Positions 29,357 to 39,112 of a DNA stretch of 64,000 bases are shown here, piece by piece. The stretch is from Sphingopyxis sp. LK2115 (GTDB lineage Bacteria; Pseudomonadota; Alphaproteobacteria; Sphingomonadales; Sphingomonadaceae), in contig NZ_JABWGQ010000023.1 in assembly GCF_014595975.1 (NCBI RefSeq), positions 1 through 64,000 on the forward strand, given 5' to 3'. Every line of letters begins with the position of its first letter. Position 1 is the stretch's first letter. The position numbers and the translations under genes were made by a program. A model generated the notes under the pieces. That model had not been told where the DNA came from and searched no databases. It saw only the letters and a program-made list of their open reading frames with translations.

Positions 29357-30859
29357 TCACGCGACCCGATGGGCCAGATTTGCCCGCGCGATCGCCGCAC
29401 GAAGCGCCTCGGCGACCCTGTCGACCTGTGTGGCCGTCATGTTGGAGCCGGAGGGCAGACACAGACCACGCGCGAAAATATCGGCTGCAACATCGCGATT
29501 ACCCCCGGCTGTCACATAACGACAACCAGCGAAGATCGGCTGCATGTGCATGGGCTTCCAGACATGTCGCGCCTCGATGTCGAGCCTGGCAAGCTCAGCA
29601 ATCAGATCGCCCGGATTCAATCCGTCAGCCAGCGTTGCCGTGGTCAGCCATCGATTGGATCGACTTCCTTCAAACTCGGGCATCCAGACAAGACTCTCAA
29701 CATCCGCCAAAGCCTCGCGATAGCGTTCGAAAACGGCGCGGCGCGCGGCAACACGTTCTTCCAGTCGTGCAATCTGACCCCGGCCGATTCCTGCCAGGAC
29801 ATTGCTCATCCGGTAATTGAAGCCCAGTTCGACATGCTCGTACCAGGGAACATCCTCACGGGCCTGCGTCGCCAGCTTGCGCGCGTGCGCCGTGATCGCC
29901 GGATCATCGGCGACCAACATTCCGCCGCCCGATGTCGTGATGATCTTGTTGCCGTTGAAACTGAAAATGCCGATGCGGCCGAAACTGCCGCACGACCGTC
30001 CGCGAAGGCTCGATCCAAGTGATTCAGCGGCATCCTCGATCACCGGCACAGCGTATCGATCGCAAATCGGCAGGAGGCGGTCATAATCGGCCGGCTGGCC
30101 ATAAAGGTCGACGATGATGACGGCCTTGGGCATATGGCCTTCGCGTCGACATTGATCGAGCGCTCTCTCCAGCGCAATCGGGCACATGTTCCAGCTGCCA
30201 TCTTCGGCGTCGACAAAAATGGGCTCGGCTGCTTGATAAAGGATGGGGTTGGCGCTTGCTGCAAAGGTCAGCGACGAGCAAATGACCCGGTCTCCACGCC
30301 CGACTCCGAGCAGGATGAGCGCCAGATGGATCGCAGCGGTTCCCGACGACAACGCCGCCGCGCTCGCAACGCCAGTGACAGCCGCAACCTCGCGCTCGAA
30401 CGCATCGACATTGGGTCCCAGCGGCGCAATCCAGTTCGATTCAAAGGCTTCGCGAACAAAGTCCATTTCATCGCCGCTCATATGCGGGGCGGACAGGAAA
30501 ATCCGCGCGGCAAGGTCACGGCGCAGATACAGTCCGGCGACCTGTCCGTCCTCGTCCAGCAGCGGGAGTTGGTCGATCGAGTGCCGGTCCATCAGCGCCA
30601 GCGCGGCTTCGCCGCCGAGGCCGTCGGGAGCGGTGATGGATGGCGAATCGCGCACATCGTCAATCGGCGAATCGAGCGTCCGGCCAGCAATCAGCAGTCG
30701 CCGGACATCGCCGTCGGTCACGGTCTGGAGGAACCGTCCGGACGCATCGACATGAAACAGAACGCCAAAGCCCGTTTCATTCAGACGCCCCAGCGCGTCG
30801 CGCAGGGTCATGCCGCTTTGCAGAAGCAGATTGGCGACTTGTCGGCGAGGAACGCTCAC
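29357..30859 (-). CDS. CBS-domain pair fused to DegT/DnrJ/EryC1 aminotransferase
   Basis: This 500-aa protein joins a tandem CBS module (about residues 10-120, with TDGDVRR at 48-54) to a full PLP-dependent sugar aminotransferase (about 122-495). Lys305 in SFNGNKIITTSGGG is the PLP lysine, and EDAAES (275-280) is the cofactor ring motif. The transferase should aminate a 4-keto-6-deoxy sugar nucleotide made by the dehydratase at 44205-46157, a LegC/PglE-type step. The start is GTG, overlapping the acetyltransferase stop (GTGA). CBS pairs bind adenine nucleotides, so allosteric control is possible. The fusion is unusual for this enzyme class. Confidence 0.88.
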   Translation of the reverse strand: MSVPRRQVANLLLQSGMTLRDALGRLNETGFGVLFHVDASGRFLQTVTDGDVRRLLIAGRTLDSPIDDVRDSPSITAPDGLGGEAALALMDRHSIDQLPLLDEDGQVAGLYLRRDLAARIFLSAPHMSGDEMDFVREAFESNWIAPLGPNVDAFEREVAAVTGVASAAALSSGTAAIHLALILLGVGRGDRVICSSLTFAASANPILYQAAEPIFVDAEDGSWNMCPIALERALDQCRREGHMPKAVIIVDLYGQPADYDRLLPICDRYAVPVIEDAAESLGSSLRGRSCGSFGRIGIFSFNGNKIITTSGGGMLVADDPAITAHARKLATQAREDVPWYEHVELGFNYRMSNVLAGIGRGQIARLEERVAARRAVFERYREALADVESLVWMPEFEGSRSNRWLTTATLADGLNPGDLIAELARLDIEARHVWKPMHMQPIFAGCRYVTAGGNRDVAADIFARGLCLPSGSNMTATQVDRVAEALRAAIARANLAHRVA

Positions 30860-31509
30860 AACAGGAACTCGTCAAGCCGTCGGCGTTCGGTCGCGGGGTT
30901 GCCGAGCCACAGGCTGTTGGCGGGGACATCCTTGGTCAGCGTGCTCCCCATCCCGATCATGCACCCCTGCCCCAGCGTCAATCCCTGCCTTATGCTGGCC
31001 CCCGTTCCGATCTCGACCCCCGCACCTGCGGTGACGCCGCCCGAGCAGGCAACGAGCGGCGCGAGGGTATTGAAATCGCCCAGCTCTGTATCGTGCCCGA
31101 CAGTGGTGTTCAGGTTGACAATCACATGCCGCCCGATGCGTATCTGCGTCGTGATCGACACATTCGCGCAGACAAGACTGCCTTCGCCGATCGACACATA
31201 GCCGGACAATGCCGCACTGCGATGCACCACGGTGCCGAAACGGGGATTTCCGGTCTTCATCATGCGGCGCACGACGGCCTGTCTTGAACGCGGAGCGCCG
31301 ATGGCCACGAGGAAATGATGATCGGCGAAGCGGTGCCAGTCGTCGACGCGGCCAAGCACCGGAACGTCGCAGACCGATTGTCCCTGCACGCCATCGTCAT
31401 CGTCCAGAAATCCCGTCACAGCCCATCCCTCGCGCGATTCACGCGCGGCCCAGAGCGCCTCGCGCCCAAGGCCCCCTGTGGCGACTATGATGATCTTCGA
31501 TTCAGCCAT
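30856..31509 (-). CDS. Sugar O/N-acetyltransferase, NeuD/PglD family
   Basis: This 217-aa protein has an N-terminal Rossmann-like half (IIIVATGGLGREAL) that binds the sugar nucleotide and a C-terminal left-handed beta-helix of hexapeptide repeats. His at VGHD is the likely catalytic base. The family includes PglD and LegH, which acetylate the 4-amino group of UDP-sugars, and NeuD, which O-acetylates sialic acid. Given the aminotransferase just downstream, the N-acetylation step is the better guess. The ATG at 31509 has a GGGGG stretch upstream. Confidence 0.85.
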   Translation of the reverse strand: MAESKIIIVATGGLGREALWAARESREGWAVTGFLDDDDGVQGQSVCDVPVLGRVDDWHRFADHHFLVAIGAPRSRQAVVRRMMKTGNPRFGTVVHRSAALSGYVSIGEGSLVCANVSITTQIRIGRHVIVNLNTTVGHDTELGDFNTLAPLVACSGGVTAGAGVEIGTGASIRQGLTLGQGCMIGMGSTLTKDVPANSLWLGNPATERRRLDEFLL

Positions 31510-31519
31510 GGACGGCCCC

Positions 31520-32662
31520 CTAATATGCATTGACCTTCATCCGCAGCGCGGGATCGGAAAAATCGGTCTTTTCCAGTATTTCGCAAATCCTGACGTCGGC
31601 ATGCGGTTCGCCATAAACATTGCGCAAGCCGTGCGAATCGAAAGTGATCGCCTTCGCTATCGCGCGACCGATCGCATCGCGTTCGGGCGGAGCGTCGAAA
31701 ATGTTCGCGCTCCGCAGCCTGCCAACCTGCCTTTCGCCGACGTTCACGACCGGCGTTCCGAATGTCGCCGCCTCGACAATACCGCTCGAAGAATTGCCAA
31801 TCAGGAAACGGCATTCGGCAAGCATGGCGAGATAATCCGCCCTCGGCATGTGATCAATCACCGCGAGCCGCCCCGCATCCTGCATCGATTCGATTTCGTT
31901 CCGAATGGCCGTGGTGCCATGGTCGGCGTTCGGCATCAACGCCACGCATCGGAACGGATGGTCCGCCAGCGCGTCGAAAATGGCTCGCCATTGCACTCCC
32001 GCTTCGGCAGCCTGCTGAACGACGGGGTGAAAAAGCAGCAGGACAAATGGCTCGTCCTCCGTGACCCCATAACGATTGCGAACGGTCACGGCAGTCGCAC
32101 GATCCGGCGCCGCCAGACCGACAAGCCCCGGTGCGCCCACATCGAATATCCGGTCGGGGTCCTCCCCCATGCGAATCAGGCGCTGGCGCGCATCGTCGTT
32201 CGACACACAATGGATATGCGCCAGTTTGGAAATGGCGTGGCGGATGGATTCGTCGACCGAGCCCGATCGGTCGCCCCCCGCAACATGAACGATCGGCACA
32301 TCTGCAAAGAGCGCAGCCGTCGCCGCGCCCAGCATCTCGCCGCGATCGCCCAGCAGCAACAGCGCGTCGCAACAATTTTCCGCCAGATAGTCGGCAACGC
32401 CGCAGGTAATGAGGCCGGCCGACAGGCCCATGCCGTGACCGCTGTCATTGTCGATCGGGACCGGGATCGTCCGGTCGACTGCAAGACCGGACGCGCTGAC
32501 CTCCCGCTCGGTGCGACCGAACCGGTCCGACAGATGCATTCCCGTGACGATCAGTCGCAGTTCCAGGCGCGGCGATTGGTCGATCGCCCGGAGTGTGGGC
32601 AGCATCAGGCCGAAATCGGCCCGCGTCCCTGTCAGATAGACGATGCGTTTCGATCGGGTCAC
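31520..32662 (-). CDS. neuC: UDP-N-acetylglucosamine 2-epimerase, hydrolysing (NeuC/LegG type)
   Basis: This roughly 380-aa enzyme epimerises C2 and releases UDP, giving a free ManNAc-type sugar for the NeuB step. TGTRADFGLMLP at the N-terminus, LLLGDRGEML, HVAGGDRSGSVDESIRHAISKLAH and GNSSSGIVEA are hallmarks of the hydrolysing type rather than the WecB type. The GTG start overlaps the neuB stop (GTGA). With the acetyltransferase and aminotransferase next to it, the likely substrate is UDP-2,4-diacetamido-2,4,6-trideoxyglucose (legionaminate route), but UDP-GlcNAc is possible. Confidence 0.88.
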   Translation of the reverse strand: MTRSKRIVYLTGTRADFGLMLPTLRAIDQSPRLELRLIVTGMHLSDRFGRTEREVSASGLAVDRTIPVPIDNDSGHGMGLSAGLITCGVADYLAENCCDALLLLGDRGEMLGAATAALFADVPIVHVAGGDRSGSVDESIRHAISKLAHIHCVSNDDARQRLIRMGEDPDRIFDVGAPGLVGLAAPDRATAVTVRNRYGVTEDEPFVLLLFHPVVQQAAEAGVQWRAIFDALADHPFRCVALMPNADHGTTAIRNEIESMQDAGRLAVIDHMPRADYLAMLAECRFLIGNSSSGIVEAATFGTPVVNVGERQVGRLRSANIFDAPPERDAIGRAIAKAITFDSHGLRNVYGEPHADVRICEILEKTDFSDPALRMKVNAY

Positions 32663-33711
32663 CCGATGTCGTCCTGACACAGCTTGCTGCCCCGCGCGAT
32701 GTCGCGCGTCGCCGTGCGCCCGAAAAGCCAGTCCGCGCGTTCAGGGCCGATACCGTCACCAGGCCGCAGAAAGGCGATGGTCGCAGCGGTCAGCCTGTCC
32801 CCTTTTTTGATATCGGCCCGCGCGAAAGCACTGCGGCGAACCAGGGTGCGCGTCGGAATCTCGACCGGCATGGGACGCTTGACGCCGTCGCCGAGAGCAA
32901 GTTCGACATGACGAATGGCGTCGATCATCGCGCGCAACTGCCGGGGTTCCAGCGACGCCGCATGATCGGGGCCGTGATCCCGGCTGTTTTCCGTAAAATG
33001 CTTTTCAATCACCGTTGCGCCGCGCGCGACCGCTGCGACCGCAATCTCTGTTCCCAGGCTATGATCCGAATAGCCCACCGGCAGGTCAAGTTCCGCGGCC
33101 AATGTGTCCATTGCGCGCAGGTTCACGCTCGCTGCCGGAGCCGGATATTCGGATGTGCAGTGCAGAACAACCAGGTCTCCCGGCGAAGCGGACACACCCG
33201 CCGCGCCCTGCGCCGCGCGAATCCAGTCCACGGCCCGGACGACCTCGGCAAGATCGGCCATGCCCGTCGACAGGATGATCGGACAGCCGACGCTTGCGAC
33301 CTTGTCGATCAGCGGCTTGTTCACAATCTCGCCGGAAGCGATCTTGATCCTTTTCATCCCCAGGCCGATCAGCATGTCGACCGCCCAGGGCGCAAAGGGC
33401 GTCGACATGAACTCGATCCCCCGCTCGGCGCAATGACGCGCGATCCGTTCATGCGCGGCATCGTCCAGTTCGAGTGCCCGGATCATCTCATATTGCGTGC
33501 CCGCGCCGGTTTGACGCTGTTGATAGGCCGCCTTCTGCGCATCGGGGGTGACGACTTCATCGGTTCGAAATGTCTGGAACTTGACCGCATCGGCTCCTGC
33601 GTCGGCGGCAATGTCGACCAGGCGCAACGCCTTGTCCAGCGATCCGTCGTGGTTTACGCCCGCTTCCCCGATAACGAATGTTCGCCCGCCGGAACCTTCG
33701 CCGCTCACCAT
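32659..33711 (-). CDS. neuB: Nonulosonic acid synthase (NeuB/LegI type)
   Basis: NeuB condenses a mannosamine-type six-carbon sugar with phosphoenolpyruvate to form a nine-carbon nonulosonic acid. The 350-aa protein has the TIM barrel (IGEAGVNHDGS, VKFQTF, KIASGEI, STGMADLAEV, VGYSDHS, IEKHFT) and the C-terminal SAF domain (from about residue 285, RRSAFARADIKKGD). Its ATG overlaps the SDR gene stop by 7 nt. It is the simpler of two synthases in the locus and sits with neuC, a cytidylyltransferase and an SDR as in legionaminate clusters. Confidence 0.93.
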   Translation of the reverse strand: MVSGEGSGGRTFVIGEAGVNHDGSLDKALRLVDIAADAGADAVKFQTFRTDEVVTPDAQKAAYQQRQTGAGTQYEMIRALELDDAAHERIARHCAERGIEFMSTPFAPWAVDMLIGLGMKRIKIASGEIVNKPLIDKVASVGCPIILSTGMADLAEVVRAVDWIRAAQGAAGVSASPGDLVVLHCTSEYPAPAASVNLRAMDTLAAELDLPVGYSDHSLGTEIAVAAVARGATVIEKHFTENSRDHGPDHAASLEPRQLRAMIDAIRHVELALGDGVKRPMPVEIPTRTLVRRSAFARADIKKGDRLTAATIAFLRPGDGIGPERADWLFGRTATRDIARGSKLCQDDIG

Positions 33712-34502
33712 GCCGTCAATCCTCCGTCAACCACGATATTCTGGCCATTGATATAAGAGGCACCGTCGCTCGCAAGAAACAGCATGGCGTCCGCGATCTC
33801 CTCGGCTTTCGCCATGCGCCCCATCGGCACTCGCGCCGAATAGCGACCCACGAACGTCTCGTTCTGACCGCTGAACACGCCTCCGGGTGTCACGGCATTC
33901 ACCCGCACGCCCTTTGAACCCCAATAAGTGGCGAGATATTTGGTGAGGCCCCAAAGACCCGCCTTGGCAGCGCTGTAGACCGCAGGTGAATTGATCGCGC
34001 GCCCCTCATACTCCGCGCCTTCGTAAATGCGCTGGTCGGGGGCAACGATGCCGTAAATGGACAGCGTATTGACGATCGTTCCCCGGCCCCGCGCCGCCAT
34101 GAGCGGGCCGAAATGCTGACAGCACAGCATGGCCGTCGTCAGGTTTATCGCCATCACTTCATTCCACTCGTCCAGCGGGAAATGCTCGAACGGCGCAAAG
34201 ATGTTCTTCGATTTGCCGGCGACATTGTTGAACAATGCGTCGACCGGGCCATGTCTGGCCTCGACACTCGCAGCCAGCTCGGCCACCTGCCCGGGGTCGG
34301 TCAAATCGCAGGGCATGGCGAATGCGGCCGCCTTGTCCTCCTGCAGCGCGTCTCGCGCGGCTTCCAGGGCCCGCTCGCAGCGGTCGACCATCACCAGGCG
34401 CGCGCCATTGCGGACGAACCGTTCGGCCGCGACGCGCCCGATGATGCCGCCCGCGCCCGTCAGCACGACAAGTTTTCCCGACAACGGACGATCCTTGTTC
34501 AC
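33705..34502 (-). CDS. Short-chain dehydrogenase/reductase (PtmA-like)
   Basis: This classical SDR of about 265 aa has TGAGGIIG near the N-terminus, NNVAG, catalytic Ser and the YSAAKAGLWGLTK motif with Tyr and Lys. In Campylobacter and related legionaminate gene sets an SDR (PtmA) lies beside the cytidylyltransferase and synthase, as here, but its exact step is not settled. The start is a GTG at 34502 with AAGGGG upstream, overlapping the previous stop (GTGA); the longer in-frame ORF to 34643 is antisense-like and overlaps the neighbour. Confidence 0.87.
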   Translation of the reverse strand: MNKDRPLSGKLVVLTGAGGIIGRVAAERFVRNGARLVMVDRCERALEAARDALQEDKAAAFAMPCDLTDPGQVAELAASVEARHGPVDALFNNVAGKSKNIFAPFEHFPLDEWNEVMAINLTTAMLCCQHFGPLMAARGRGTIVNTLSIYGIVAPDQRIYEGAEYEGRAINSPAVYSAAKAGLWGLTKYLATYWGSKGVRVNAVTPGGVFSGQNETFVGRYSARVPMGRMAKAEEIADAMLFLASDGASYINGQNIVVDGGLTAW

Positions 34503-35191
34503 TGGCCCGCCCCTTCCCGCATCAAAAGTTCGACGAGCTTGAAGTCCAGCTCGGAATCGATGTCGATGGATCTTTCGCGCGGCATGACATGGAGCCGCGG
34601 CTCGCTGTCCCAAAGGACGGTGCCGAGCGCGTGACGTTTCCACACATAGATGGACGCATTCATCGCATAAACCGGCGGCGCCGCCTGACGTGCGACCACA
34701 TGCCCCGATTCCGACCGCTTCGAAAGCCGGGCAATCCCGGTTTCGTCAACCTCAACCATATTGAAATAAGGGTTCTTTTCGGCCTCGAAAGCCGTAATCA
34801 CCGCTTCGGCGCCCGCATCGACCAGATCAAGACAGGCATCAATGTCGGCGGACAGTCGCAGGGGCGACGTCGGGTCCAGATCGACAATCCGGTCCACGTC
34901 ACAACCGGCGGCCTCGACATGTTCGACCAGATGCCGAATGACCGGAAGCTTTCCGGCCGTATCGGTCGCGAGTTCAGCCGGACGCCGATAAGGAACGGTT
35001 GCCCCCGCCGCCCGCGCAATATCGGCAATCGCTTCGCTGTCGGTCGACACAAAGACACGATCGATGCGCGAATGCGCCAACGCCATTTCGATCGTATGGA
35101 CAATCAACGGCTTGCCAAGCAGCGGGCGGATATTCTTTCCCGGCACGCCCCGCGACCCTCCGCGCGCGCAAATCGTACAGATGGTGCTCAA
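34499..35191 (-). CDS. neuA: Acylneuraminate (nonulosonate) cytidylyltransferase, first copy
   Basis: This 230-aa enzyme activates a nonulosonic acid with CTP to the CMP-sugar. ICARGGSRGVPGKNIRP at the N-terminus is the nucleotide-binding signature. DLDPTSPLR and DIDSELDF carry metal and sugar contacts. The start is TTG, its TTGA overlapping the stop of the oxidoreductase gene. Together with the SDR and neuB it forms a tight block. A second copy (38426-39112) has clearly different sequence, so the two may act on different nonulosonates. Confidence 0.92.
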   Translation of the reverse strand: MSTICTICARGGSRGVPGKNIRPLLGKPLIVHTIEMALAHSRIDRVFVSTDSEAIADIARAAGATVPYRRPAELATDTAGKLPVIRHLVEHVEAAGCDVDRIVDLDPTSPLRLSADIDACLDLVDAGAEAVITAFEAEKNPYFNMVEVDETGIARLSKRSESGHVVARQAAPPVYAMNASIYVWKRHALGTVLWDSEPRLHVMPRERSIDIDSELDFKLVELLMREGAGQ

Positions 35192-36189
35192 TTCCCGTCC
35201 CCGCCCTGATCGACAAATGCGTGCGCCGCGATAGCGAGCCGGGTGGCCTTCAAACCCTCGTGCAGCGGCAACCGCGTCATGCCCCGCCCATGCGCCGCAT
35301 CGAGCAGTTCCGCAAGCTCAAGCCGATAGGCCGCATCAGCCGATGCAGCGCCGACAACCCGCTGCTCTTCGCCGCTGGCACCGTGCAAGACGAGCGTTGC
35401 AGCGCGGAAATCGAGCGTCGCCGTCGCTTCCTCGCCAATGACGCGGATCTCGCGCCGCGGCGTGCGCGACACATAGTCAAGCGCGATCTCGACCGGCAAT
35501 CCGTCGGCCGCGCGCAGATGGAGCAGCGCGACGTCCTCGCTCGTGATGTGAAGCGAGCTTCGCTGGTCCCGCACGGCGTGCAACAATGTGCAATCGCCGA
35601 AGAACATCACCGCCAGGTCGATTTCGTGGACAAGATCAAAAATCACGCCGCCCCCACGCTCCCGCGAGGCCGAATAGGATGTGCGATAATCGCTGCCGGG
35701 GCGCCAGTCGGGCAGATATTGGCCGCATTCGAAACGGGCGCGGATCAGCCTTCCGAGCCGACCTTCATCGAGCCAGCTTTTGAGACGGACCACCAGGTCG
35801 GTGAACCGCAGAACACAGCCCACCTGCGTTGGAGGCAGGTCGACGCGTCGCAATCCTTCCAGATAGGCGCAATCCTCCGCGCGGATCACCACAGGTTTTT
35901 CGATGAACGTGGGGATCCCCGCGGCGAGGAGTGTCGGCAGCGTATCGAAATGGCGGTCCGACGGCGACGCGACGATCGCCATGGCAGGGCGCCATTCGAT
36001 GGCCTGGTCCAGTGCCCGGAACACATGAGCCTGCATCATCGACGAATAATCGTCGGCCCCGCCCTCGTGACGAAGAAACGCCAGCCGCCCACCCGGGACC
36101 AGGCCCTTCAGGTTTGCGACGTGCCGCCGACCGATTGACCCTGTCCCGATGACAAGAAATCGCGGGGAATCGGCGTCGTTCAAAACCAT
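35188..36189 (-). CDS. Gfo/Idh/MocA family NAD(P)-dependent oxidoreductase
   Basis: This 333-aa protein has an N-terminal Rossmann motif (IGTGSIGRRH, residues 14-23), the EKP motif that marks the active site of this family, and a C-terminal alpha/beta domain. It probably oxidises or reduces a hydroxyl of a sugar or sugar nucleotide. The ATG overlaps the stop of the trifunctional synthase by 10 nt and the TGA overlaps the next start. Its place between two nonulosonate modules suggests it tailors one of these sugars, but the substrate is unknown. Confidence 0.85.
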   Translation of the reverse strand: MVLNDADSPRFLVIGTGSIGRRHVANLKGLVPGGRLAFLRHEGGADDYSSMMQAHVFRALDQAIEWRPAMAIVASPSDRHFDTLPTLLAAGIPTFIEKPVVIRAEDCAYLEGLRRVDLPPTQVGCVLRFTDLVVRLKSWLDEGRLGRLIRARFECGQYLPDWRPGSDYRTSYSASRERGGGVIFDLVHEIDLAVMFFGDCTLLHAVRDQRSSLHITSEDVALLHLRAADGLPVEIALDYVSRTPRREIRVIGEEATATLDFRAATLVLHGASGEEQRVVGAASADAAYRLELAELLDAAHGRGMTRLPLHEGLKATRLAIAAHAFVDQGGDGN

Positions 36190-38429
36190 TGTTCGAGGCG
36201 GTCCAGCGCCTGCCAGAACCCCGCGCCGTCATCCTTGTGGCCTTGCCATATCTCTGGAATAAAGCTGGCATCGGGTGCCGTTTCGCGCAGAACGTCGGCG
36301 ACCATGGCGAAATCGACGGTGCCGTCGCCGATCTGAAGGCCTTCGCCGTCGATACCCGCAGCGTCGACGATATGAATGTGGCGCGTATACGGTCCGACTT
36401 GCCGCAACAATTCCTGAAAACTGGTCTTGAGATGGGTTGCCGCCAGCGCCGAGTGCGATACGTCAAGGCAGACCCGATACCCATGTTTCGAGCAGAAGCC
36501 GACAATGTCCTCGGCCGACAGGAACAGGTTGTGATACCGTTGTCCGCCGAAATGCCACGGATAGGGCGGCATCGTCTGGGGAATGATTTCCACCCCTTCG
36601 CTGTCCAGCCGCGACAGCGCATCGGCGATACGGTCATACATCGCCGGCCGCTTGTCCGCGGTGATCGGACCGTCTGCGGAAAAGCCGCCTGCATTGATGA
36701 TGATCGGCGGACGACCGGATTTTGTGAAATAGGGTTTCAGCGCCCGCGTAATGTCGATCACGCGCTGCAGCTCATCCATCGATCGCTGGCGATAGGCCTG
36801 ATCCTCCGAACACAGATCCATGATATGGTCGCCGGCGAACAGTTCGGGGCTATGCACGACGAGTGCGACAGCGAATTGCTGGCCATCCAGAATCTTGCCG
36901 GGGTCAAGCTCCATATCCTTGTAGCTCAGATGAAACTCGACAAGGTCGAGATTGGTGGCGTCGACCAGCTTGCGCAGGTCGTGGTATCGCACGGGAACAC
37001 CGAAAGGACGATCGAACCGATATTCGCGCGCCTTGGCCACCGCATCCACCAGGTCGCTCTGGAAGAAAAAATCGCCCTCGATCATGTCGCGCTTCGCGGT
37101 TCGCCCGACCAGTTCGCCGCGGAAATATGGTTGCAACCCCTGCCCCGGACTGCGGATCTGGACATCCTCGTCGGCGATGATCTGACCGGCCCTGATCGGC
37201 CGCGCGGCGACCAGGCTCTTGGCCAGAACTTCGCGGTTCATCATTTCGCCCTGCGTGATGCCGCGCGCGCCGCCATATCCCATGGCTTCCTCGACCTCCC
37301 GGATGGCGCGCACCATCGCCGCGAATTCGTCGGGCAGCAGGCTGACCCGATGATCATTTCCTTCCATTCCCCGATCGACGGTGAAATGTTTCTCGATGAC
37401 CTTTGCCCCCATCGCCACGGCCGCGACGGGAACGGAATAGCCGCGCTCGTGCCCCGAATAGCCGACAACCCCGCCCGAAAGTTTCTGCAGCCTTTTGATA
37501 TAGGCCAGGTTGATATCCTTGAACGGCGCCGGATAGGTCGAGTTGCAGTGGAGCAGCACATAGGGGGCGGTGTGACGCTTCAACACGGCAATCGCGCTTT
37601 CGATCTCGCTCTGCGTCGACATGCCGGTCGAACAGATCAGCGTCTTTCCGGTCCGGGCCATGGCGCTCAACAACGGGTGGTTGGTCAAATCGGCCGACGC
37701 CAGCTTATAGGCCGGCATGCCATAACTCTCCAGCCGGGCCAGGCTCGCTTCGTCCCAGGGGGTGCACAGCGGCTGGATGCCCAGTTCCCGGCAATAGTCG
37801 AACACTTCCAACAATTCATCGACGGGCAGTTGAAAGCGCGACAGCAGGTCCAGCGTATATTGGGCGCCCAGGTCCGCGCTTGCGTCATCGGAATCGCCTT
37901 CGTTGCGGTAAAGGCTCGACATGTCACGCATCTGAAACTTCGCGCAGTCGGCCCCCGCCTCGACCGCAAGTTCGACCAGACGCTTCGCCAGTTCGATGCT
38001 GCCATTGTGATTATTGCCGATTTCGGCGATGATATAGGACGGGCTGTCCGGGCCGATTGACCGGTCGCCGATCCGGACAACCGGCCGACCCTTGAACGCG
38101 ACGGCGCGCAGATGATGCTGTCCATCGACGATGGGAACGAAGGTCACCCTTTCGGAAAACAGGTCGTTCACCTCATCATCGCTGGCTCCGTCGCGCGCCG
38201 CGACAAATTGTTTGTTCGCCACCATCGCCGCGCTGACGCTGAAATCGAACCGGCCGCCGTCGACGAGCCAGCGGCGCACGTCGCCGTCCGTCAATACCGC
38301 TTCGAGCTTTCCCGACGCCGAAACGCACAGCACGAACCCGCGCTGGTTGACGCTGATCTTGCGAAGAGCCGATACAATATCTTCTTCGGCAAAGACGATC
38401 AGCGGCGCAATATTCCGTTCGATAATCAC
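36180..38429 (-). CDS. Trifunctional CBS - NeuB/SAF - xylose-isomerase-like barrel protein
   Basis: This 749-aa protein has three modules. Residues about 1-118 form a CBS pair with TDGDVRR (47-53). About 120-465 is a complete NeuB-type synthase (IAEIGNNHNG 134-143, EKHFT 346-350) with a SAF domain (RPIRAGQ, 410-416). About 472-749 is an AP-endonuclease-2/xylose-isomerase-like barrel with metal-ligand-type segments VEFHLS, CLDVSHS, HIHIVDA and PEIWQGH. The synthase makes a nonulosonic acid from PEP. The barrel may isomerise or epimerise its six-carbon substrate, which is inference. The start is GTG, overlapping the second cytidylyltransferase stop (GTGA). The upstream in-frame extension overlaps that gene. 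Confidence 0.9.
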   Translation of the reverse strand: MIIERNIAPLIVFAEEDIVSALRKISVNQRGFVLCVSASGKLEAVLTDGDVRRWLVDGGRFDFSVSAAMVANKQFVAARDGASDDEVNDLFSERVTFVPIVDGQHHLRAVAFKGRPVVRIGDRSIGPDSPSYIIAEIGNNHNGSIELAKRLVELAVEAGADCAKFQMRDMSSLYRNEGDSDDASADLGAQYTLDLLSRFQLPVDELLEVFDYCRELGIQPLCTPWDEASLARLESYGMPAYKLASADLTNHPLLSAMARTGKTLICSTGMSTQSEIESAIAVLKRHTAPYVLLHCNSTYPAPFKDINLAYIKRLQKLSGGVVGYSGHERGYSVPVAAVAMGAKVIEKHFTVDRGMEGNDHRVSLLPDEFAAMVRAIREVEEAMGYGGARGITQGEMMNREVLAKSLVAARPIRAGQIIADEDVQIRSPGQGLQPYFRGELVGRTAKRDMIEGDFFFQSDLVDAVAKAREYRFDRPFGVPVRYHDLRKLVDATNLDLVEFHLSYKDMELDPGKILDGQQFAVALVVHSPELFAGDHIMDLCSEDQAYRQRSMDELQRVIDITRALKPYFTKSGRPPIIINAGGFSADGPITADKRPAMYDRIADALSRLDSEGVEIIPQTMPPYPWHFGGQRYHNLFLSAEDIVGFCSKHGYRVCLDVSHSALAATHLKTSFQELLRQVGPYTRHIHIVDAAGIDGEGLQIGDGTVDFAMVADVLRETAPDASFIPEIWQGHKDDGAGFWQALDRLEQWF

Positions 38430-39112
38430 TTGGAGAGTTCCTGTTTCATCAGCGCTTCGACGATCTCGAAGTCGATTTCGGAGTCGATTTCCCAGCCTTC
38501 GCATTCGCGCATGCGGTAGAGGGCGATGCGCCCCGCCAGGCGATTGCGTTTTTCCAGGAGAATGTCCCTTTTTGTCAAATATAAGGAGCCCGTTTCGCGA
38601 TAATGACGATCTGTTTCGGCAATATCCTGGCGTCGCGGGCGATTGGTATAGTCATAGGATGCGCGGACCGGATCCGTCTGCCAGAAAAAGGCGTGGCTTT
38701 CGACGACGCCAAGCAGACTGTCGGCATTATCCGCCGCAAAGGCACCGAGCGCCCCGTCGATCGTTCCCGGCAAACGAAGCGGCGACGTCGGTTGCAGCAG
38801 CAGGATCGTTTCGTACCGCTTCCCCCCCATCGCCTCCATCCGTTCAACCGCATGCAGCATGACGGGTTCGGTCGGGGCCGTGTCGGTCGCCAGTTCGGCG
38901 GGACGCAGAAATGGCACGTCGGCGCCAAAGGACCGCGCAACATCGGCTATGTCCTCGGCGTCGGTCGACACAAGCACGTCGGACACACCCTTCGCCGCCA
39001 GCGCCTGCTCGATGCTCCAGGCAATCAGCGGCTTTCCGGCCAGCGGCCGCAGATTCTTTCCGGGGACACCCTTGGAACCGCCGCGGGCCGGAATGATCGC
39101 CAGAACCGACAT
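38426..39112 (-). CDS. neuA: Acylneuraminate (nonulosonate) cytidylyltransferase, second copy
   Basis: This 228-aa protein has the signature IIPARGGSKGVPGKNLRP at its N-terminus, LLQPTSPLR in the middle and EIDSEIDFEIVEAL near the end, as in CMP-sialate and CMP-legionaminate synthetases. It is directly coupled to the trifunctional synthase (GTGA) and to the unknown gene before it (TGATG). It therefore most likely activates the product of that synthase. The acceptor pocket region differs visibly from the copy at 34499-35191. Confidence 0.92.
   Translation of the reverse strand: MSVLAIIPARGGSKGVPGKNLRPLAGKPLIAWSIEQALAAKGVSDVLVSTDAEDIADVARSFGADVPFLRPAELATDTAPTEPVMLHAVERMEAMGGKRYETILLLQPTSPLRLPGTIDGALGAFAADNADSLLGVVESHAFFWQTDPVRASYDYTNRPRRQDIAETDRHYRETGSLYLTKRDILLEKRNRLAGRIALYRMRECEGWEIDSEIDFEIVEALMKQELSK

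What the first reader, a model, noticed from the sequence alone, without database searches (positions are those of the whole stretch)
36180..38429. Three-module protein: CBS pair, sialate-type synthase with SAF, and a xylose-isomerase-like barrel
One 749-aa chain carries a possible nucleotide sensor, a nonulosonate synthase and a second metal-type TIM barrel. The barrel could make or correct the six-carbon substrate, giving channelling, and the CBS pair could sense energy or CTP/CMP. This layout is not the classical NeuB and suggests a regulated and possibly different nonulosonate.
Basis: partly seen in the sequence, partly recalled or inferred. Interest (0 to 1): 0.72.

Follow-up and report, generated by a model that had tools for sequence, protein, structure and literature searches.

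The report
Fused synthase, probably for Kdn sugar
This gene encodes a three-part enzyme, found in many unrelated bacteria, that most likely builds the sialic-acid relative Kdn for surface sugars, with a built-in helper enzyme and a probable feedback sensor.

Summary
The three modules are real. The gene runs on the minus strand, 36180-38429, from a GTG start that overlaps the upstream CMP-sugar synthetase (38426-39112) by four bases. The layout is not unique: the 120 relatives listed carry both NeuB and the barrel, and named isolates span several phyla. A NeuB with an extra isomerase/epimerase domain is already in print for Serratia marcescens, where neuB is needed for sialic acid and the capsule holds mostly Kdn (PMC9000132); whether that protein belongs to this clade was not tested. 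The synthase keeps its catalytic core but lacks the SAF arginine (Arg314) that holds the N-acetyl group of ManNAc: Ser in 65 of 66 and 238 of 241, against Arg in 30 of 38 NeuB rows. I infer a substrate without N-acetyl (mannose or mannose-6-phosphate) and a Kdn-type product. The barrel is a well-predicted epimerase-like fold with Gln in place of the first expected Glu ligand; its reaction is unproven. In four loci the CBS pair sits on a nearby kinase instead, which fits a pathway sensor; its ligand is unknown. The window seems to carry two nonulosonate gene sets. Ordinary in kind; the barrel step is an open, testable question.

The parts
36180..38429 (-). CBS-NeuB-SAF-xylose-isomerase-like barrel protein, 749 aa (GTG start at 38429)
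38085..38429 (-). CBS pair (residues 26-140 of the 774-aa reading); only the first repeat has the TDGDxRR motif
37272..37979 (-). NeuB catalytic domain
37047..37220 (-). SAF (antifreeze-like) domain
37149..37151 (-). Ser452 codon, at the place of the N-acetyl-binding Arg314 of Neisseria NeuB
   Evidence: role of Arg314 from PMC6795526 (passages)
37926..37928 (-). Arg193 codon (FQMR motif), invariant in the family; Phe, Tyr, Ala, Leu or Thr in the Arg314-bearing NeuBs compared
36183..37037 (-). Xylose-isomerase-like TIM barrel (residues 490-774)
36576..36578 (-). Gln643 codon, end of barrel strand 5, where sugar epimerases have a Glu metal ligand (recalled)
36462..36464 (-). Asp681 codon, end of strand 6 (putative metal ligand)
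36372..36374 (-). His711 codon, end of strand 7 (putative metal ligand)
   Evidence: (65 of 66)
36252..36254 (-). Glu751 codon, just after strand 8 (putative metal ligand)
38426..39112 (-). CMP-sugar synthetase, the usual partner (4-bp overlap)

Best explanation
The gene encodes a regulated nonulosonate synthase for a sugar without N-acetyl at C5, most likely Kdn. The NeuB-SAF part condenses phosphoenolpyruvate with a mannose-type aldose (mannose or mannose-6-phosphate), and the coupled CMP-sugar synthetase activates the product for a surface polysaccharide. The fused barrel is an active metal enzyme of the sugar isomerase/epimerase fold. It most likely acts before the condensation, making the aldose from a ketose such as fructose or fructose-6-phosphate, because the product has no hydroxyl at C3 for a ketose-3-epimerase-type reaction. 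The CBS pair is a portable sensor of a nucleotide or of the CMP-sugar end product, acting by feedback. Shown by computation: architecture, family-wide conservation, loss of Arg314, partnership with the synthetase, CBS pair on a nearby kinase in some loci. Inferred: substrate, product, barrel reaction, CBS ligand.
Against: No substrate was tested. It was not checked that the Serratia protein belongs to this clade or has CBS. Serratia also makes some Neu5Ac. A two-Glu epimerase mechanism is unlikely with Gln643. The member next to heptose-type genes (L054) may use another sugar. Arg193 and Arg354 hint at an acidic substrate but were not modelled. Fifteen of 78 loci show no CMP-sugar synthetase within reach, five of them with over 3 kb on both sides. 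The 240 proteins are the best hits of two searches and biased to near relatives; in the more diverse 66 some barrel residues vary slightly (Asn604 58, His709 64, His711 65 of 66).
Confidence: 0.55

Rival explanations
1. The barrel is the missing phosphatase: the synthase makes Kdn-9-phosphate from mannose-6-phosphate, as in Bacteroides and algae, and the barrel removes the phosphate before CMP activation.
Against: The best fold matches are sugar epimerases. The His that binds the third zinc in endonuclease IV (recalled) seems to be Gly722, by my uncertain reading. A general phosphatase could do the job: P. parvum itself shows no recognisable Kdn-9-P phosphatase.
Confidence: 0.17
2. One reading: a sialate/legionaminate-type synthase for ManNAc-like sugars, with the barrel making or correcting the amino sugar.
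For: The synthase part scores highest with the NeuB_NnaB model, and a Leg-like gene set follows in the window.
Against: It scores below the NeuB_NnaB cut-off (325.6 vs 399.65 bits); Arg314 is lost; the window already has a NeuB with Arg and a score above the cut-off (32659-33711); NeuC-type genes lie near in only 3 of 78 loci.
Confidence: 0.13
3. The product is not C9: members use another aldose, such as a heptose phosphate, and the neighbourhoods decide.
For: L054 has an HddA-like kinase upstream and a GmhA-like isomerase downstream; L144-L146 have the CBS-HddA-like kinase upstream. All these score below the curated cut-offs.
Against: Seen only in the side branch without CBS; homologues of this kinase were found in none of the other loci searched.
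Confidence: 0.1
4. The barrel is a catalytically dead scaffold.
For: First metal ligand Glu replaced by Gln.
Against: Glu523, His525, His551, Asn604, Gln643, Asp681, His684, His709, His711, Asp714, Glu721, Glu751 and His756 are invariant in 241 of 241; in the 66 all but Asn604 (58), His709 (64) and His711 (65) are invariant.
Confidence: 0.05

Closest known systems
Serratia marcescens KL1/KL2 NeuB (PMC9000132)
   Same: NeuB with an added sugar phosphate isomerase/epimerase domain, next to neuA; two neu genes described in the passages read
   Different: CBS pair not mentioned in the passages read; sequence not compared here
Neisseria meningitidis NeuB (NmeNANAS; 1xuu, 2wqp)
   Different: Arg314 is Ser, Phe112 is Trp or Phe, Asn184 is Ser; extra CBS pair and barrel
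Kdn-9-phosphate synthase (Prymnesium parvum; Bacteroides BT1714)
   Same: Proposed product class without N-acetyl
   Different: Uses mannose-6-phosphate; separate phosphatase in Bacteroides; sequences not compared here
MJ1311 (3wqo) and Thermotoga L-ketose-3-epimerase (5h1w)
   Different: Sequence identity 15-19%; Gln at strand 5 (against the recalled Glu); fused to a synthase
CBS pair of arabinose-5-phosphate isomerases (KpsF/GutQ, 4o9k)
   Same: CBS part matches GutQ/KpsF models; profile match to 4o9k E=6.9e-12
   Different: Attached to a synthase here; the second repeat lacks the motif. That 4o9k binds CMP-Kdo is recalled, not looked up

Membership tests
NeuB/SAF synthase family (PF03102 + PF08666) | Domains above Pfam gathering scores | tested here: met
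   286.4 vs 22.1 and 45.4 vs 21 bits
NeuB/SAF synthase family (PF03102 + PF08666) | Active-site residues Glu25, Gln55, Thr110, Lys129, Tyr186, Ser213, His215, Glu234 (Neisseria numbering, PMC6795526) | tested here: met
   All eight kept in 241 of 241; of the same list Asn74 and Phe288 were not mapped
N-acetylneuraminate synthase (TIGR03569 equivalog) | Score above the curated cut-off | tested here: not met
   325.6 vs 399.65 bits
N-acetylneuraminate synthase (TIGR03569 equivalog) | SAF arginine (Arg314) that positions the N-acetyl group | tested here: not met
   Ser452 here; Ser in 65 of 66
Pseudaminate synthase (TIGR03586) | Score above the curated cut-off | tested here: not met
   239.8 vs 340.25 bits
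Kdn / Kdn-9-phosphate synthase | Uses mannose or mannose-6-phosphate | not testable with these tools
   Needs an assay; indirect support only, from Arg314 loss and PMC9000132
Kdn / Kdn-9-phosphate synthase | Sequence relation to BT1714 or the P. parvum enzyme | not tested
   Neither sequence was fetched
Xylose-isomerase-like barrel (PF01261) | Domain above gathering score, and the fold | tested here: met
D-tagatose/ketose 3-epimerase | Glu-Asp-His-Glu metal set (recalled) | tested here: not met
   Gln643-Asp681-His711-Glu751 by position in the model; Gln in 66 of 66 and 241 of 241
CBS pair | Two CBS repeats by profile | tested here: met
   Profile of 24 sequences, both repeats aligned, best E=2.6e-17; Pfam CBS itself not reported for the window protein at E<=1e-3
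CBS pair | Binds a nucleotide | not testable with these tools
   Only the first repeat has the TDGD motif

The most novel reading that the evidence does not exclude
A two-gene, self-contained and feedback-controlled Kdn factory that runs from central metabolism: the barrel supplies the one missing step (ketose to mannose-type aldose, or removal of the 9-phosphate), the NeuB part makes Kdn, the coupled synthetase makes CMP-Kdn, and the CBS pair shuts the enzyme down when CMP-Kdn builds up. This would make Kdn one of the more widespread bacterial nonulosonates, hidden in databases under the name N-acetylneuraminate synthase.
Probability: 0.3. Interest if true: 0.6.

Novelty: new member of a known kind. 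Interest (0 to 1): 0.42.

Why it matters
The sequence signature (Ser instead of Arg314, an FQMR motif, SGHERG, and a fused barrel) separates a large group of proteins, many now labelled N-acetylneuraminate synthase, from the Arg314-bearing synthases. If the Kdn reading holds, it gives a simple way to predict Kdn in cyanobacteria, marine bacteria, rhizobia and enteric bacteria, and it poses a sharp question: what does the fused barrel do?

Tried and rejected
A 1073-aa form in L002 and L003 looked like a fusion with the CMP-sugar synthetase; by my reading of its N-terminus it is an out-of-frame read-through of the upstream gene. The Shewanella SfmA and Vibrionaceae nab papers (passages) show no such fusion in what I saw. 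My first ORF caller missed some CMP-sugar synthetases (46 of 67 loci within 6 kb; one search found missed ones); tblastn replaced it (63 of 78 within 8 kb). Of the 15 loci without one, 10 have under 3 kb on at least one side; L017, L024, L027, L067 and L068 have more on both sides and still lack it. A profile search for the barrel alone listed mostly proteins with parts of SAF or NeuB or on short contigs (best 120 of 838); P0161 and P0208 have the barrel only and sit on long contigs, and may be true stand-alone barrels or broken genes; their context could not be seen. The single-module sister group (L148-L150) showed no barrel by BLAST and no phosphatase among seven ORFs annotated. Paper searches for the CBS-NeuB-barrel layout gave nothing on it except PMC9000132, listed; the library lacks most subscription journals. 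Search for the CMP-Kdo/CBS link gave no usable paper (listings only). Plasmids: one of 102 matching records covers over 80% of the query; its stretch has no annotation. Foldseek 'viral' and plain 'pdb' were not used. Residue-level comparison of the model with epimerase structures was not possible, as no coordinates were given out. The tree's long-branch warning concerns rows outside the group of interest.

Full report

How common it is. The 120 best hits of the first protein search carry NeuB and the barrel (7637 proteins passed E 1e-3, but these include ordinary NeuBs). A genome scan gave 79 loci, among them isolates of alpha- and gammaproteobacteria, Synechococcus and Cyanobium, Brachybacterium and Sporolactobacillus, and draft genomes labelled beta-, delta- and epsilonproteobacteria, Nitrospirales and others; the last six loci hold ordinary NeuBs. 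One draft labelled Actinomycetota (L002) is base-for-base equal to Sphingomonas L003 over 3219 bases, so labels of drafts are not safe. Another search listed full-length members in Vibrio, Colwellia, Pseudoalteromonas, Klebsiella pneumoniae and K. aerogenes. Within the window's phylum it is rare: 5 of 398 genomes, the window's own included, have a barrel match above 400 bits, and none of the 18 other genomes of the same genus or family listed there has a match. So it is patchily spread. In a tree of 75 NeuB domains the 27 barrel-bearing rows form one side of a branch (support 91/94); next to them come one protein cut off by its contig end (L071) and single-module NeuBs that share the KFQ.R and SGHE motifs.

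Substrate. The active-site list for Neisseria NeuB in PMC6795526 (passages) includes Arg314 from the SAF domain, which positions the N-acetyl group of ManNAc; R314A is inactive, R314K active. The aligned residue here is Ser452: Ser in 65 of 66 family members, Gly in one (the 66 include the equal pair L002/L003), and Ser 238, Cys 2, Ala 1 of 241. Among 38 NeuB rows from loci L083-L121, 30 have Arg; the 8 others are three barrel-bearing members (Ser), three single-module relatives of the sister group (Asn) and one FAD-oxidase-NeuB fusion fetched twice (Gly). The 38 were chosen by best score, hold one more gene fetched twice (L089/L092) and include the window's own second NeuB. Eight of the other listed residues are kept in 241 of 241, Phe112 is Trp (223) or Phe (18), Asn184 is Ser, and Asn74 and Phe288 were not mapped. 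Arg193 is invariant in the family and absent from the Arg314-bearing rows; Arg354 is invariant in the family but also occurs now and then elsewhere. I infer that the aldose has no N-acetyl group.

Literature. PMC9000132 (passages, Discussion) reports that S. marcescens KL1 and KL2 capsule loci start with neuA and neuB, that NeuB contains an additional COG1082 sugar phosphate isomerase/epimerase domain, that loss of neuB lowers sialic acid fourfold and abolishes capsule, and that the polysaccharide contains Kdn and Neu5Ac at about 20:1. The Arg314 change was in my notes before that paper was read, so the two lines are independent. PMC12077157 (passages) reports a capsule-null neuB mutant in KL2. 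I could not test whether that protein lies in this clade. Kdn in a Klebsiella capsule (K. ozaenae K4) is cited in PMC9000132, and Klebsiella has full-length members with the signature residues (P0260 and P0265, 55-57% identical to the window protein). PMC6200933 (passages) describes a P. parvum Kdn-9-P synthase that converts only mannose-6-phosphate among the sugars tested, and a Bacteroides route with a separate phosphatase.

Neighbourhood. Other genes of the window's cluster are near far less often: NeuB2-type 7, NeuC 3, NeuD 3, LegC-type 16, SDR 16, Gfo/Idh 6, LegB-type 7. Many cyanobacterial loci are close relatives of each other. The core module therefore seems to be the pair synthetase plus fused synthase; the legionaminate-like genes in the window look like a second, separate set.

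Barrel. In the model, Gln643, Asp681, His711 and Glu751 sit at or just after the C-terminal ends of strands 5, 6, 7 and 8, where ketose epimerases carry Glu, Asp, His and Glu (recalled). Gln643, Asp681, His684 and Glu751 are invariant in 66 of 66 and 241 of 241, His711 in 65 of 66 and 241 of 241, so this is a kept active site and not decay. A two-Glu epimerase mechanism would lose one base. As a 3-deoxy product offers no C3 hydroxyl, an epimerase/isomerase reaction should come before the condensation. Isomerisation of fructose(-6-P) to mannose(-6-P) fits two-gene loci best; removal of the 9-phosphate is the main rival.

CBS pair. Three NeuB-SAF-barrel proteins from one unnamed genus (L144-L146) and one from a draft labelled Oxalobacter sp. 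(L054) lack the CBS pair. A CBS-plus-HddA-like kinase gene (below the HddA cut-off) lies next to them upstream in L145, L146 and L054 and 0.9 kb upstream in L144; two further proteins without CBS as called (L063, L065) showed no such kinase (L063 has little upstream sequence). The kinase's CBS part also matches the CBS parts of LegC-type aminotransferases in L003 and L005 and of 348-aa proteins in L074 and L076. A regulator that sits on several enzymes of such pathways fits sensing of a shared nucleotide or CMP-sugar. Only the first repeat holds the TDGD motif, which argues for one site per pair.

Verdict. The layout is an established, widespread family, and a NeuB with the extra barrel domain is already noted in print. 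What I did not find in print (searches named in Tried and rejected) are the Arg314-to-Ser signature linking it to Kdn-type substrates, the two-gene core across phyla and the CBS pair's change of place. The barrel reaction is the open question.

Noticed in passing
window 29357-36189 (-): A second nonulosonate gene set: CBS plus LegC-type aminotransferase, NeuD, NeuC, NeuB with Arg314 and a score above the Neu5Ac-synthase cut-off, SDR, second CMP-sugar synthetase, Gfo/Idh oxidoreductase, resembling the Campylobacter legionaminate set (recalled). The window may make two nonulosonates.
   Followed up: partly
window 29357-30859 (-): The LegC-type aminotransferase also carries an N-terminal CBS part that matches the KpsF/GutQ models.
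   Followed up: partly
L054:7833-14842: CBS-HddA-like kinase, NeuB-SAF-barrel, GmhA-like isomerase, pyruvyl transferase, CMP-sugar synthetase and Gfo/Idh in one run; possible link of heptose and ulosonate pathways.
   Followed up: partly
L108:1288-3678 (-): 797-aa protein: FAD amine-oxidase/UDP-galactopyranose-mutase-like part fused to NeuB-SAF, with Gly at the Arg314 place.
   Followed up: no
L086, L087, L090: Single-module NeuBs with KFQKR/SGHE motifs and Asn at the Arg314 place; near the fused family in the tree.
   Followed up: partly
L026, L028-L032, L035, L037, L039-L042, L059, L072, L073: In these 15 loci, most labelled Synechococcus or Cyanobium, the gene stands near a cluster whose representative is a DUF6716 putative glycosyltransferase; sulfotransferase-type clusters (15 and 9 loci) and a Capsule_synth cluster (8 loci) recur in an overlapping set.
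   Followed up: no
L002:1045-4263 and L003:7092-10310: A draft genome labelled Actinomycetota and Sphingomonas corticis share 3219 identical bases here, which suggests a mis-binned contig.
   Followed up: no
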